Positions 47,114 through 56,740 of a stretch of DNA of 64,000 nt are shown here, piece after piece. The notes beneath the pieces were generated by a model. The model saw nothing but the letters and a program-made list of their open reading frames with translations. It searched no databases and was not told where the DNA came from. The DNA is from Lachnospiraceae bacterium (GTDB taxonomy: Bacteria; Bacillota; Clostridia; Lachnospirales; Lachnospiraceae): assembly GCA_017455525.1 (NCBI GenBank), contig JAFTAP010000078.1:1-64000 (forward strand). Reading direction: 5' to 3'. A program made the position numbers and the translations under genes. The first letter of the stretch is position 1, and the number at the start of each line of letters is the position of its first letter.

Positions 47114-47232
47114 GAGATAACTTTACGTTGCTATATGACTACGCATAGCTCCGCTGCTTCGCAGCTCTCGCTCTGCTACAAGCATTCACAATCCGGGCTG
47201 TCGCCCTTCTTGCTCATGCTTGTTCGGGTCAT

Positions 47233-47277
47233 AAAGTCATAATGCTTATCATGCGAGCATGAACGCATTCTGACTTT
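47233..47277. repeat. Inverted repeat immediately after the binding-protein stop codon
   Basis: aaagtcataatgc (47233-47245) pairs with gcattctgacttt (47265-47277) at 12 of 13 positions, with an inner atgc/gcat. The rest of the 170-base gap contains smaller stems such as gctgc-ttc-gcagc. There is no T-run, so protection of the abundant binding-protein mRNA end is likely. Confidence 0.7.
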
Positions 47278-47285
47278 CTTCCCCT

Positions 47286-48569
47286 TTAGTCATATAAGTT
47301 CGGAGCAATCGTATCATCGTTCATGTTCGATGCATCATACCAGTAACCGGCTGTAGGGAAGTCCTCAACCTTGTCGCCGTTTGCTGCCATCGTCAGAGCA
47401 TAGATCGCATAGTAACCCATCATAAGAGGAGACTGAGTAACTGCACCATACATCGTGCCATCCTCGATAGCGCCCTTGATGATAGAACCGGCATCGAAAC
47501 CAACACCGATCACGTCTCCGCCTGCTGCATCAGTACCAAGGATAGAAAGGTTAGCATCTGCCGCAAGCACACCCTCTGCTGCGGTCTGGTTTGATCCGAA
47601 GATACCGATCGTGTCAGACTTAGACATGATTGCCTGTGCTGCTGTAGAGCAAAGCTCAACCGTCGTCTGTGCAGGAACAGAAACCTCGATGACTACATCT
47701 GTGTCGCCGCTGTCAGCGCCCTCTGCTGCGTTTACATAGAACTCATTACCCTCGACTGAAACTGTCTTGCCGTCAGCCTGAATAAGAGAGATCATCTTAT
47801 TAACGAAGCCAAGTCCACGCTGCTGGATGTTAAGAGCCGTAGCGTCCTGGTTAACCTCACCGATACGAACCTGTGAGTCAGCAGAAGCGATAACGTCCTT
47901 AATAGCTGTGTACATATTCTCAGCAGCAACCTCGCCTGCCTGAGTATTGTCTGTAGCGACAGTCGCAACTACAGATCCCTCGGGAGCGTCAGCAACACCT
48001 GTATCGAAGCAGACTACAGGGATACCCTTGTCCGCGCAGTCCTTAAGAGAATCAAGAACTGATGTGGTATCGCAAGCTGCAAGTGCGATTCCGGGAGGGT
48101 TGCTGTTGATATCGCTGTTCAGCATGTTAACCTGGTCAGCTATATCTGACTCAGAGTTAGGGCCGTGTGCGTCATAATCAACGCCAAGCTCTTCCTTAGC
48201 CATGTCCATACCCTTAAGTGCTGCCTGCCAGTAGGTTGACTGGAAAGACTTAACGTCTACAGGGAACTTGTAAGCTTCCTTAGCTGTTACGCCGTCAAAC
48301 TGTGTGCCGCCGGTGAACTCGCCTGATCCGCCTGTTGCTGCAGGAGCTTCCTCCTCTGCGGGAGCTGCTTCCTCTTCTGCAGGAGCCTCTTCCTCTGCAG
48401 GAGCTGCTTCCTCTTCCGCGGGAGCCGCCTCTTCCTCTGCAGGAGCTGCTTCCTCTTCTGCCTCTGCTGCAGGCTCTGCTGCGGGCTCAGCTGCTGTGCC
48501 GCCGCAGCCTGCGAGCAATGACATTACCATTGCTGCGCTAAGTAACGTTGCCAGTAATTTCTTTTTCAT
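47286..48569 (-). CDS. Sugar ABC transporter substrate-binding lipoprotein (RbsB-like)
   Basis: A 427-residue exported protein. The signal peptide KKLLATLLSAAMVMSLLAGC ends in the lipobox LAGC. Residues 25-82 are an Ala/Glu/Pro repeat linker (units AEEEAAP). The periplasmic-binding-protein type 1 domain starts FPVDVKSFQSTYWQAALKGMDMAKEELG, with ALAACDTTSVLDSLKDCADKGIPVVCFDTG and DTIGIFGSNQTAAEGVLAA. Relatives bind ribose, xylose, allose or other monosaccharides; the ligand is not clear. It has its own promoter besides the operon one. The extended linker is unusual in length. Confidence 0.9.
   Translation of the reverse strand: MKKKLLATLLSAAMVMSLLAGCGGTAAEPAAEPAAEAEEEAAPAEEEAAPAEEEAAPAEEEAPAEEEAAPAEEEAPAATGGSGEFTGGTQFDGVTAKEAYKFPVDVKSFQSTYWQAALKGMDMAKEELGVDYDAHGPNSESDIADQVNMLNSDINSNPPGIALAACDTTSVLDSLKDCADKGIPVVCFDTGVADAPEGSVVATVATDNTQAGEVAAENMYTAIKDVIASADSQVRIGEVNQDATALNIQQRGLGFVNKMISLIQADGKTVSVEGNEFYVNAAEGADSGDTDVVIEVSVPAQTTVELCSTAAQAIMSKSDTIGIFGSNQTAAEGVLAADANLSILGTDAAGGDVIGVGFDAGSIIKGAIEDGTMYGAVTQSPLMMGYYAIYALTMAANGDKVEDFPTAGYWYDASNMNDDTIAPNLYD
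48343..48485. repeat. Coding tandem repeat (Ala/Glu/Pro linker)
   Basis: Units of 15-24 bases encoding AEEEAAP/AEEEAP recur about seven times in the binding-protein gene, e.g. gaggaagcagctcctgcag on the coding strand. The count could vary between strains by slippage. Confidence 0.8.
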
Positions 48570-54044: not shown

Positions 54045-55349
54045 TTACTTGATGTACCCGACTGCATAGTTATAGTCGTCAGCCGCATCCATGACGAAAT
54101 CCATGAGCAGGGCTTTCGCATCCTTTTTCAGCTTGCCGTCACGTACCTTCTTGTACTGTATCGGCATGTACTGATAGAGAAGCCCCGTCGGAATCTCCTG
54201 CTTATCTATGTTTCTGATAAGCTTCTCAATCCCATCCCTTATCTCAGGCATAGCGAAATAATAACGGCATCTGTCGGACAGGCTGTAGCGGCGCTTGATC
54301 GCTATCTCCTTATCCGTGCCATGATAATACTTCGCCCACTTTGAAGTGTCGTCAAGCATGAGCTTCTCTAAAAGCTCAGGGAACTTCACCTGATCGCTCT
54401 CCGGCACAAGCACCTTCTCGATCTCGCTCATTGCGAAAAGCCCATCCCTTAAAGCAAAGGTAAGAGCAGGACCTACCTTAAGTATAGCGACTCCGTCCTC
54501 TACCATCTGCTTCAAGCACTCAGGCGGCTGATAATCAGTCGAATGCCCCTCCATATATATGCCGTCAAAGGTCTTTATTTTACTGCAAAGCTCCTTCGCA
54601 TTATCACGGTTATAAGGGAACACTTCATCATCACCGAACTCCACGCCCGGCTGCACGACTATCGCTATCACGTTGTCAAAAGCCTTAGGATCAGATATAC
54701 CCGCAAACTGCTTCTTATATTCCTCAAGAGTCGCAAGCACCGCCTCCGGCTTCGTGACGCTGATGCTGTCCTCCTGCTCCTGCGCCCCGCCGGGAATAGG
54801 AACCTCGCTTCCTATGATAAATACGGGACGCTTCTCGTCAGGATTCGACTTCAGCATCTCCTGATAGCTGTCCTCGCAAGCCTGATAAAGCCTCGCTCCG
54901 CGCCTTGCCACGGTCTCATCGGTAAGCGGTTTATCCGTAGGATCGTCCGCAACCCTCATGCTCGTGTCGAGATGGATCTTCTTATAGCCTGCCTCGACAA
55001 AAAGCTTCACGAGAGTCTCCGCCTTATCCATAGCGCTCTCCTCAGGCTCATTCACCCAGGTAAGCGGTCCCAGATGATCTCCGCCGAGCACTATCCTGTC
55101 ATGCGGATAATCAGCTCTGTCCGCTATCTCATACACGAAATCCCTGAAATCCGCCGGCTTCATACCTGTATACCCGCCGAACTGATTGACCTGATTAGCC
55201 GTAGCCTCTATCAGAATATCAACATCCAGCTCCTTAGCCTGTCTTATCAGTGCTTCTATCACTATGTCATTCGCCGTGCAGTAAGAAGGCACCCCTGCGA
55301 TCTTCCCCGCCTTCCTCTCCCGCACCATATTCTGCATTAAGTTACTCAT
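54045..55349 (-). CDS. KbaZ/GatZ-like protein (tagatose-bisphosphate aldolase, so-called non-catalytic subunit)
   Basis: A 434-residue TIM-barrel protein. CTANDIVIEALIRQAKELDVDILIEATANQVNQFGGYTGM is the family opening, followed by RIVLGGDHLGPLTW, KIHLDTSMRVADDP, PVFIIGSEVPIPGGAQE and VVQPGVEFGDDEV. In enterobacteria KbaZ/GatZ works with the class II aldolase KbaY/GatY; no aldolase gene is here. Orphan members have been linked to phosphorylation or conversion of tagatose-type ketose phosphates, which would fit with the dehydrogenase and kinase upstream. A structured 303-bp element separates it from the reductase. Confidence 0.85.
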   Translation of the reverse strand: MSNLMQNMVRERKAGKIAGVPSYCTANDIVIEALIRQAKELDVDILIEATANQVNQFGGYTGMKPADFRDFVYEIADRADYPHDRIVLGGDHLGPLTWVNEPEESAMDKAETLVKLFVEAGYKKIHLDTSMRVADDPTDKPLTDETVARRGARLYQACEDSYQEMLKSNPDEKRPVFIIGSEVPIPGGAQEQEDSISVTKPEAVLATLEEYKKQFAGISDPKAFDNVIAIVVQPGVEFGDDEVFPYNRDNAKELCSKIKTFDGIYMEGHSTDYQPPECLKQMVEDGVAILKVGPALTFALRDGLFAMSEIEKVLVPESDQVKFPELLEKLMLDDTSKWAKYYHGTDKEIAIKRRYSLSDRCRYYFAMPEIRDGIEKLIRNIDKQEIPTGLLYQYMPIQYKKVRDGKLKKDAKALLMDFVMDAADDYNYAVGYIK

Positions 55350-55398
55350 TTATGTTGTTCTCTTTTCTATTAATATTAATTTTGTTCTCAATCGTCAG

Positions 55399-55701
55399 GG
55401 CTCGTGGGTGAATATATATTTGCTGAGGGCAAAATATGCCCTTTGGCATATTTTGAGTGCCGTTTAGACACGCCATGCGTGTCTGGCACCGGGGCGCCCC
55501 GGGGTGCTGATGCGCATAGCGCATCAAAACGCACCCGCAAAACGTCCACTGGACGTTCCGCCACTTCCCGTAAGCACTTAGTTTGAGCGTTAAGATATGC
55601 GAGATTTATCGAGCATATTAGCTCAAACTTAGTGCGTCGAGGAAGTTAGTTCGGACAAGCGTTGGCTCTGACCGAAGCAAATATATATTCACCCACGAGC
55701 C
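55399..55701. repeat. 303-bp element with 26-bp perfect terminal inverted repeats and nested hairpins
   Basis: 55399-55424 is exactly complementary to 55676-55701. Inside, perfect or near-perfect stems follow each other: 55430-55440 with 55445-55455 (11 bp), gtgcc 55457-55461 with 55485-55489 enclosing agacacgc/gcgtgtct, palindrome 55489-55502 (ccggggcgccccgg), gggtgc 55502-55507 with 55531-55536 enclosing tgatgcgc/gcgcatca, 55541-55547 with 55551-55557, and 55574-55588 with 55621-55635 (14 of 15). Almost every base is paired. No target duplication is visible at the flanks and no gene inside is supported. It lies in the transcript between the reductase and the KbaZ-like gene. Confidence 0.92.
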
Positions 55702-55723
55702 AAAAACCACATCCTAAAAATTA

Positions 55724-56740
55724 TTATTTCGCATCAGGGCAATCTACGATCACTCCGTCTTCATCCCACAGATCATGCCAATCCGTAGCTCCGGGCCATA
55801 AGAACACCTGCCCCTTCACAAGCCTGTTATTCTTCTCTAAGGTAGCTATCGTAGCCATCTCCTCATCGGTAAGCGGCTCCGTCTGCGTTGATTCAAGATT
55901 GCTCACATATTCCATCTCATGGATAGAGAAAGGAATCGGGATCTGTCCCCTCTGTACCGCCCACTTAAGAGCGATTATAGCAGGGTGAACGCCATGCTTC
56001 TCCGCAATCGCCTTGAACTCAGGCACCTGCATATCCGCAATATCAGTCGCCACTATATCCCTCTCGGGACGCTGAGGTGAACCAAGAGGCATGAAGCCTA
56101 TAGGCTGTATGTCGTGAGCCTTTAAGTAATCAAAAAGCTCCTGCTGCTGGAAGCAAGGGTGAAGCTCAAGCTCGCAAGCGACCGGCTTGATGCGGAACTT
56201 ATCGACTACCTGCTCAAGCTTCGGTATCGTCATATTCGAGATACCGATGTGACGTACTAAGCCCTTATCCACGAGATCCTCGATCTGACGATAAGTATCC
56301 ATGAACTCCTCTACCGAGAAAGGCTTTGAATCAGGATTCCTTGAATCAACGTCGCATCCCGGAGCATGATAGTTCGGGAAAGGCCAGTGTATGAAATAAA
56401 GGTCTATGTAGTCGCACTGAAGGTCTGCGATACTCTTCTTAGCTGACTTCTCGACTTCCCTGTGCATGTCGTTCCAGACCTTGGTCATGATATAGAGATC
56501 CTTTCTCTCTACCACTCCCTCGTCAAAAGCTGCCTTGAATACCTCTCCGATCTGGTCCTCATTGCCATAGCATGCTGCGCAGTCAAACATACGATAGCCT
56601 GCCCTGATCGCTCCTGCCACGGCGTTGCTGACCTGCTCAGGCGTGAACCTGTCGGAACCGAAGGTGCCCATGCCCATGCACGGAACCTTATCTCCCGTAT
56701 TCAATGTAATCTGCGGTACTTTGCTTGGATCTACTCCCAT
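55724..56740 (-). CDS. Aldo/keto reductase
   Basis: A 338-residue NAD(P)H-dependent reductase of the AKR barrel. PCMGMGTFGSDRFTPEQVSNAV opens the barrel; YRMFDCAACYGNEDQIGEVF carries the catalytic Asp and Tyr, IMTKVWND the Lys, and YIDLYFIHWPFP the His. The cofactor end contains ALKWAVQRGQIPIPFSIHEMEYVSNL, in which IPFS replaces the common IPGS/IPKS. It would reduce an aldose or ketose of the pathway, or oxidise its polyol. AAAGGAG lies before the ATG. It stands between the zinc dehydrogenase and the structured element. Confidence 0.9.
   Translation of the reverse strand: MGVDPSKVPQITLNTGDKVPCMGMGTFGSDRFTPEQVSNAVAGAIRAGYRMFDCAACYGNEDQIGEVFKAAFDEGVVERKDLYIMTKVWNDMHREVEKSAKKSIADLQCDYIDLYFIHWPFPNYHAPGCDVDSRNPDSKPFSVEEFMDTYRQIEDLVDKGLVRHIGISNMTIPKLEQVVDKFRIKPVACELELHPCFQQQELFDYLKAHDIQPIGFMPLGSPQRPERDIVATDIADMQVPEFKAIAEKHGVHPAIIALKWAVQRGQIPIPFSIHEMEYVSNLESTQTEPLTDEEMATIATLEKNNRLVKGQVFLWPGATDWHDLWDEDGVIVDCPDAK

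What the first reader, a model, noticed from the sequence alone, without database searches (positions are those of the whole stretch)
55399..55701. A 303-bp non-coding element made almost wholly of nested hairpins and closed by 26-bp perfect terminal inverted repeats
55399-55424 and 55676-55701 are exact complements, and at least six further stems of 6-15 bp fill the inside. It is neither a simple terminator nor a typical insertion sequence, and no gene inside is supported. It sits in a catabolic transcript between the reductase and the KbaZ-like gene. It could be a MITE-like transposable element, a highly branched regulatory RNA that sets the KbaZ level, or a recombination site. Compensated stems (14 of 15 with one mismatch) suggest that the fold is kept, but I have no alignment.
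Basis: seen in the sequence. Interest (0 to 1): 0.75.

Follow-up and report, generated by a model that had tools for sequence, protein, structure and literature searches.

The report
Patchwork of jumping hairpin repeats
The 303-base block between two sugar-breakdown genes is a patchwork of hairpin repeats, other copies of which lie across this genome and its close relatives; it likely got there as mobile DNA, and the pieces keep their paired shape while their letters change.

Summary
In detail: 55399-55424 and 55676-55701 are exact complements, and the inside is nearly all stems (fold z about -15 on both strands). The locus is not unique. The block joins (a) the 3' part of a structured repeat, "F" here (8 places in this genome), and (b) an inverted pair of a 60-nt double hairpin, the "unit" (27-29 model matches in this genome; 32 of 37 genomes of the genus; none in 195 other genomes of the order). 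Both show strong compensatory change (F: 37 of 61 pairs; unit: 21 of 24), with alike loops and bulge, better on one strand. Units are precisely bounded: two F copies of one relative differ by an exact 63-bp unit insertion. Units also lie inside two published RNA families, TwoAYGGAY and Clostridiales-1. In six close relatives the same spacer lacks this block and holds other hairpins. The 26-bp arms are not classical transposon ends: they differ between copies and show no consistent target duplication. Best reading: a mosaic of mobile structured repeats, like BIME/REPIN or BOX elements but of a family not found described. The mobilising enzyme was not found. A specific role for KbaZ is not supported; a general effect on the transcript is untested.

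The parts
55399..55424 (+). left arm of the closing stem (exact complement of 55676-55701)
55676..55701 (+). right arm of the closing stem; 22 nt after the stop codon of the aldo/keto reductase gene when read in the sense direction
55430..55489 (+). double-hairpin unit 'AB': 11-bp hairpin (loop CTTT) + 5-bp stem, 4-nt bulge GTTT, 8-bp stem, 3-nt loop; flanked by G and CG
55490..55502 (.). GC palindrome CGGGGCGCCCCGG between the two units
55503..55561 (-). double-hairpin unit 'ED', same architecture with a 3-nt first loop, inverted with respect to AB
55429..55565 (+). AB-palindrome-ED block, shared at 93-94% with two other elements of this genome (contigs C48, C7) whose 3' part differs from F
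55561..55692 (+). 3' part of repeat 'F', shared at 94-95% with the C22 and C105 copies (the latter to 55686); its 5' strand is replaced by the AB-ED block
55601..55612 (+). conserved F apex GAGATTTATCGA on covarying stems (tandem G.A pairs by inspection)
55724..56740 (-). upstream gene: aldo/keto reductase family (PF00248)
54045..55349 (-). downstream gene: GatZ/KbaZ-like (PF08013)

Best explanation
The 303-bp block is a mosaic of interspersed hairpin repeats - the 3' part of a structured repeat (F) joined to an inverted pair of 60-nt double-hairpin units - that likely entered this operon spacer as mobile DNA after the species split, by an enzyme that would read it as a folded single strand. 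Shown: many copies, the mosaic joint, covarying stems with alike loops and bulge, a strand preference, exact unit insertions in F repeats, and absence of this block from the same spacer in six relatives. Inferred: that the covarying fold is kept because the mobilising machinery recognises shape rather than stem sequence. The AB and F parts face one strand and the ED part the other, so no single transcript would show all of them in their preferred sense. Once present just behind a stop codon, the block is predicted to be co-transcribed and would act as a passive barrier to 3'-5' decay of the reductase message; this is untested.
For: Copies: 26 blastn matches to the block in its own genome, itself and its two arms against each other included; unit model in 32 of 37 genus genomes, up to 57 matches in one, 0 of 195 other genomes of the order under stricter filters; F-core model in 11 of 37 genus genomes, 0 of 195. 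Mosaic: 55429-55565 matches two loci and 55561-55692 two others, at 93-95%, meeting at 55561-55565. Structure: F, 94.7% of cells paired, 37 of 61 pairs with double changes, covariation 0.434 against 0.154 shuffled; unit, 99.1%, 21 of 24 pairs, 0.658 against 0.168. Strand: among 136 distinct units non-Watson-Crick cells are GT 35 / AC 10 and GA 46 / CT 5 on the unit strand; F consensus fold -75.4 (+) against -55.5 (-). Mobility: L081 and L082, same genome, F copies 92% identical over 199 aligned bases, differ by one 63-base gap that is G-unit-CG; L030 against L084 shows a second site. Unit edges: G before in 96-97%, C(C)G after in 90-97%, no other of the 20 flank positions on either side above 61% (79 AB-like and 76 ED-like of 159 rows). 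Spacer: 7 genomes with the same two genes; only this one has the block. Both orientations occur relative to genes.
Against: No mobilising enzyme: no PF01797 (Y1 transposase) match in this genome and none in 19 of the 32 unit-bearing draft genomes; 6 RAYT-like loci examined carry no unit. No consistent target duplication at F-type arms: a 7-bp direct repeat within 30 nt of both arms in 3 of 24 copies (1.2 expected), an 8-bp one also in 3 (0.5 expected), all at different offsets. Units are not generally placed inside target hairpins (13 of 88 against 6% expected, p = 0.046). In co-directional spacers single units are sense 33 to antisense 17 and often sit at stop codons, which an mRNA role would also predict. 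On the 56 pairs common to both F folds GT against AC is only 16 to 11 (GA against CT 18 to 4). Unit and F copies are related, so counts are not independent. No within-species presence/absence data.
Confidence: 0.66

Rival explanations
1. A folded element of the operon mRNA: the hairpins behind the reductase stop codon stabilise the upstream message and uncouple or lower KbaZ expression, and this keeps the fold.
For: Units often abut stop codons; in 9 of 58 co-directional loci the first hairpin arm starts one base before the stop codon and so contains it. All 7 spacers compared have some predicted hairpin. Sense bias 33:17.
Against: The F motif strand is antisense to the operon in 13 of 18 co-directional loci, this one included (counted; by hand a two-sided p of about 0.1); AB is antisense and ED sense in the same block; the structures in the orthologous spacers are of different kinds.
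Confidence: 0.18
2. A free-standing structured RNA gene family transcribed from the + strand, many copies per genome.
For: Strong one-strand covariation with conserved unpaired letters, RNA-like; -10-like letters before the closing stem in several copies (by eye).
Against: At this copy only weak promoter matches (2 found, 0.9 expected) and no terminator; the window copy has lost the 5' strand of F; copies differ in the closing stem.
Confidence: 0.1
3. A classical MITE with 26-bp terminal inverted repeats moved by an insertion-sequence transposase.
For: Terminal inverted repeats, no gene, many copies. Clostridiales-1 in two genomes of the genus does look like this: 10 of 16 copies with both full ends have perfect 7-bp duplications.
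Against: Arms differ between copies (L003/L005: cores 94% identical, arms at chance level); no consistent target duplication.
Confidence: 0.05
4. Assembly artefact.
For: Long inverted repeats can be mis-assembled.
Against: The same architecture is found in another species' assembly (L027, 87-89%) and its parts in many assemblies.
Confidence: 0.01

Closest known systems
BOX elements of Streptococcus (PMC3049150, passages read)
   Same: modular, highly folded, interspersed, insert into one another, one forms a composite with two T-box riboswitches
   Different: BOX has terminal repeats and target duplications; no BOX sequence was compared here; here closing stems are copy-specific and the units have G...CG edges
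REP / REPIN / BIME with RAYT transposases (PMC3116915, PMC3733652, PMC8266576, passages read)
   Same: short hairpins, high copy, behind genes, sometimes supplying the stop codon, in E. coli one folded strand recognised and a bulge in the stem; here an inverted pair in the window
   Different: no conserved GTAG or CGTC tag, two-hairpin unit of about 63 bp, no unit beside 6 RAYT-like genes, stems vary freely with compensation
Rfam Clostridiales-1 (RF01699) and TwoAYGGAY (RF01731)
   Different: no Rfam match to the block and none to F copies in the F loci scanned; different consensus
Neisseria elements bounded by 26-bp inverted repeats (name from recall; the passage of PMC3049150 seen only mentions repeats delimited by 26-bp inverted repeats)
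   Same: 26-bp inverted ends, folded
   Different: the equal arm length is probably coincidence: other F copies have arms of 21-34 nt of other sequence, as cut from the alignment

Membership tests
MITE | terminal inverted repeats shared by copies | tested here: not met
   arms 88% complementary within a copy on average (lowest 44%), but left arms only 52% identical between copies (16 copies); L003/L005 at chance
MITE | target-site duplication | tested here: not met
   7-bp direct repeat within 30 nt of both arms in 3 of 24 F-type copies, 1.2 expected; 8-bp 3 of 24, 0.5 expected; offsets all different; 0 of 6 TwoAYGGAY copies. A stricter test at the exact ends of Clostridiales-1 gave 10 of 16
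REP/REPIN/BIME | high-copy short palindromes outside genes | tested here: met
   112 of 137 clusters not inside a mechanically called ORF, 34 of these without two near neighbours
REP/REPIN/BIME | copies mostly as inverted pairs | tested here: inconclusive
   an inverted pair in the window, but only 6 of 58 co-directional clusters have two opposite units and 50 have one
REP/REPIN/BIME | GTAG or CGTC tag at one end | tested here: not met
   edges are G before and C(C)G after; no conserved tetranucleotide
REP/REPIN/BIME | associated RAYT gene flanked by the repeats | tested here: not met
   6 RAYT-like loci without units; no PF01797 match in this 93%-complete genome
BOX | modular composite of distinct folded modules | tested here: met
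BOX | sequence homology to boxA/B/C | not tested
   no BOX sequence was compared
Clostridiales-1 / TwoAYGGAY | match to the Rfam model at the gathering score | tested here: not met
   no match in 55399-55701; the only match in the window is 47134-47294
Intrinsic terminator | GC-rich stem followed by a T run | tested here: not met
   0 found in 55200-55900
IS200/IS605-type single-strand mobile element | Y1 transposase acting on the hairpins | not testable with these tools
   needs biochemistry; 16 of 37 genomes have a PF01797 match, 19 of 32 unit-bearing drafts do not

The most novel reading that the evidence does not exclude
A mobile DNA system read by shape: a 63-bp double hairpin that moves as a folded single strand, keeps only its loops, bulge and edges while its stems drift by compensation, is moved by a still unknown enzyme, and colonises other structured repeats, including two families filed in Rfam as RNAs.
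Probability: 0.3. Interest if true: 0.82.

Novelty: new variant of a known kind. Interest (0 to 1): 0.63.

Why it matters
It gives a large natural experiment (136 distinct units in one scan) in which dispersed DNA repeats covary like RNA, so that shape-guided mobility and RNA function can be separated. It also shows that two Rfam families are high-copy repeats in this genus; one of them has the target duplications of a transposon in two genomes, so its 'small RNA' label needs review there. Genus-specific copies with exact edges would allow tests of how small structured repeats spread and what they do to operons.

Tried and rejected
Tried: (1) Y1 transposase partner: the long, weak PF01797 proteins in the genus looked like RAYTs, but 6 loci examined had no unit (only perfect hairpins of 8 bp or more were sought there). 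One IS200-like gene (G004, L120), of 4 such loci in that script, lies about 250 bp from an ED unit; G004 has 57 unit matches, so chance is possible; not followed. (2) Insertion of units into hairpin loops in general: weak (88 non-redundant of 150 flank pairs, 18 with a neighbouring unit left out). (3) Target duplication at F arms: no consistent one. (4) Closing stem as a copied target sequence: suggested by the Clostridiales-1 copy at 47134-47294, whose arm overlaps the end of a gene; I had no test of it on F and dropped it. (5) Rfam for the block and for F loci: no match to the block or to F. (6) Viral contigs: 0 stretches with the unit pattern. (7) Literature: in the listings of searches (8, 1, 12, 12, 1 and 10 titles shown) I saw no paper on such repeats in Lachnospiraceae; the library holds only open-licence papers and most listings were cut. 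(8) Part of the entry in the notebook says '25 of 37 same-genus'; the table gives 31 of 37, which I use.

Rows dropped: for the strand count only units with a bulge G..T and at most 5 mismatches were kept (136 distinct); one search used 135 of 153 scan hits. A1 uses 16 of the F copies then held; A4 uses 68 of the 95 units with a 3-nt loop; a first unit alignment (A2) was set aside because 3-nt and 4-nt loops were out of register. The scan counted G.T as paired, so the strand-symmetric one search is the one cited.

Full report
What is there. The block at 55399-55701 is real and as described. It lies 22 nt behind the stop codon of an aldo/keto reductase family gene and 49 nt before a GatZ/KbaZ-like gene, both on the minus strand. 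No ORF of 80 aa or more lies inside it, and no terminator-like site was found.

It is not a single-copy feature. A blastn search of its own draft genome (2.72 Mb, 110 contigs) gave 26 matches, one of them itself and two the arms matching each other. The matches are modular. Bases 55429-55565 match contigs C48 and C7 at 93-94%, and 55561-55692 match C22 and C105 at 94-95%. The two sets meet at 55561-55565. The block is therefore a joint of two elements that also exist apart. A copy with the same joint occurs in another species (G021, locus L027; 89% over 252 bases, 87% over 283 aligned). Its neighbours were not identified; that genome gave no KbaZ-like match, so it is a different place.

The left part: an inverted pair of units. 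The unit is an 11-bp hairpin followed after one base by a second hairpin: 5-bp stem, 4-nt bulge on the 5' side (mostly GTTT or GCTT), 8-bp stem, 3-nt loop. AB (55430-55489, plus) and ED (55503-55561, minus) are two copies facing each other around a GC palindrome. In an alignment of 68 units with a 3-nt first loop, 99.1% of cells are paired and 21 of 24 pairs have changes on both sides; the covariation score is 0.658, against 0.168 shuffled and at most 0.117 when slid. The first-hairpin loop (mostly AGT, CTTT or GGT) and the bulge stay alike. In a strand-symmetric scan of all loci then held, 136 distinct units had GT 35 against AC 10 and GA 46 against CT 5. The copies are related, so these are not independent counts, but the direction is clear: the folded unit strand is the tolerated one.

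Unit spread. The model from that alignment matched 32 of 37 genomes of the genus, 29 times in this genome and up to 57 times in one, and none of 195 other genomes of the order under stricter filters (where this genome gave 27). A 25-base pattern hit 99 stretches in named species genomes; of the 80 titles shown all are Lachnospiraceae but one Enterobacter bin, not followed up. No viral contig matched.

Unit edges and insertion. Units are preceded by G in 96-97% and followed by C(C)G in 90-97%; other flank positions are at most 61% alike. In genome G023 two F copies (L081, L082) are 92% identical over 199 aligned bases and differ by one gap of 63 bases that is G-unit-CG. L030 and L084, also of that genome, show a unit at another place in F. 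In 7 of 40 loci scanned with Rfam a match spans a unit: TwoAYGGAY in L007 and L053, L088, L091, L108; Clostridiales-1 in L017 and, below the gathering score, L036. Some units lie inside other units (L009, L038, L048, L175, L213; by eye).

The right part: F. Sixteen F copies without the AB-ED block align over 216 columns. The consensus has 61 pairs, 37 with double changes; 94.7% of cells are paired, covariation 0.434 against 0.154 shuffled and at most 0.102 when slid. Invariant letters lie largely in loops and joints, for example GAGATTTATCGA, but also in one inner stem that hardly varies. The + strand folds better as an alignment (-75.4 against -55.5), partly through conserved G.U pairs; on the 56 pairs common to both folds the GT:AC count is only 16:11 (GA:CT 18:4). 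The F-core model matched 11 of 37 genus genomes and none of 195 others in the order; in this genome it lists 8 places. In the window copy the 5' strand of F has been replaced by the AB-ED block, so part of the 3' strand (about 55647-55672) has lost its partner.

The closing stem. Of 24 pairs in the F closing helix, 21 have double changes; 88.6% of its cells are paired. Arms are 88% complementary within copies (lowest 44%) and 62% when arms of different copies are paired. Copies with similar cores mostly share arms, but L003 and L005, both in this genome, have cores 94% alike and arms at chance level. A 7-bp direct repeat near both arms was found in 3 of 24 copies (1.2 expected) and an 8-bp one in 3 (0.5 expected), at offsets that do not agree. 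The 26-bp ends are therefore not fixed transposon ends with a regular duplication.

Position and orientation. Of 137 unit clusters, 58 lay between co-directional genes, 10 convergent, 10 divergent, 25 inside a predicted ORF and 34 could not be placed; ORFs were called mechanically. Of the 58, single units were sense in 33 and antisense in 17, and 8 clusters held two units. In 9 of the 58 the first hairpin arm contains the stop codon of the upstream gene at its second to fourth base. The F motif strand was antisense to its operon in 13 of 18 co-directional loci (counted).

The same spacer in relatives. Of 37 genomes, 17 have a KbaZ-like match; in the 7 with 86% identity or more (this one included) the same reductase end lies upstream. 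Only this genome has the block. G018 has one ED unit there by the model and a second, shortened one by eye; G023 has a TwoAYGGAY match; G012 an A-like hairpin by eye; the other three have other predicted hairpins.

What it most likely is. A mosaic of mobile structured repeats. The mobility of the unit rests on exact edges and filled/empty pairs; that of F rests on dispersed copies and on absence from orthologous spacers, which is weaker. The mechanism (recognition of a folded single strand) is inferred from covariation, strand preference and the opposite facing of parts within one block. The enzyme is unknown: PF01797 had no match here and none in 19 of 32 unit-bearing drafts, and 6 RAYT-like loci have no unit.

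Against what is known. Passages read: REPINs are inverted REP pairs tied to RAYTs (PMC3116915); REPs carry GTAG or CGTC tags, and GTAG REPs often give the stop codon (PMC3733652); TnpA-REP of E. coli reads a folded strand and a bulge (PMC8266576); BOX elements are modular and folded, and BOX, RUP and SPRITE repeats insert into one another (PMC3049150). TwoAYGGAY was proposed as a CsrA-binding RNA whose external stem is not well conserved (PMC4333381, passage); both Rfam families are listed in PMC2864571 (table passage). The block works like these repeats but meets neither the tag nor the RAYT criterion of REPs nor the duplication criterion of MITEs.

Noticed in passing
loci L318-L332, L346-L349 (genomes G014, G009): Rfam Clostridiales-1 (RF01699) behaves as a transposon-like repeat: near-identical copies with ends GATGTCAGGGTCAAAAG / CTTTTGACCCTTACATC; of 25 loci looked at, 16 have both full ends and 10 of these a perfect 7-bp target duplication (L327 and L346 have the same flanks and may be one site in two genomes). 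This genome has 53 Clostridiales-1 matches, with only 56 candidates scored.
   Followed up: partly
window 47134-47294 (-): A Clostridiales-1 match whose 5' arm overlaps the last codons and stop of the sugar-binding protein gene (47286-48569). In genome G035 the gene end reads TACGACTA and a downstream TAGTCGTA complements it; here it is TATGACTA with TAGTCATA.
   Followed up: partly
L153, L188, L215, L310: Units joined to partial tRNA-Pro-like copies next to an intact tRNA-Pro gene, with the unit in the D-loop region or before the T arm of the partial copy.
   Followed up: partly
G004:C107, L120: An IS200-like transposase gene about 250 bp from an ED unit; chance not excluded.
   Followed up: no
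L097, L164: Units next to a tRNA 3'-half-like sequence with no tRNA gene called.
   Followed up: no
L045, L046, L098-L100, L103, L107: Several ED units follow a recurring sequence like AAGATTCTTCGCTTCGCTCAGAATG, itself a repeat.
   Followed up: no
L022 (G000:C6): An A-type hairpin between two direct repeats of about 54 nt (by eye).
   Followed up: no
L149 (JALCNW010000085.1): One unit-pattern match in an Enterobacter metagenome bin, the only non-Lachnospiraceae title of 80 shown; chance or contamination.
   Followed up: no
L111 (G024:C21): Two F repeats in tandem, 249 bp apart, nearly identical.
   Followed up: no
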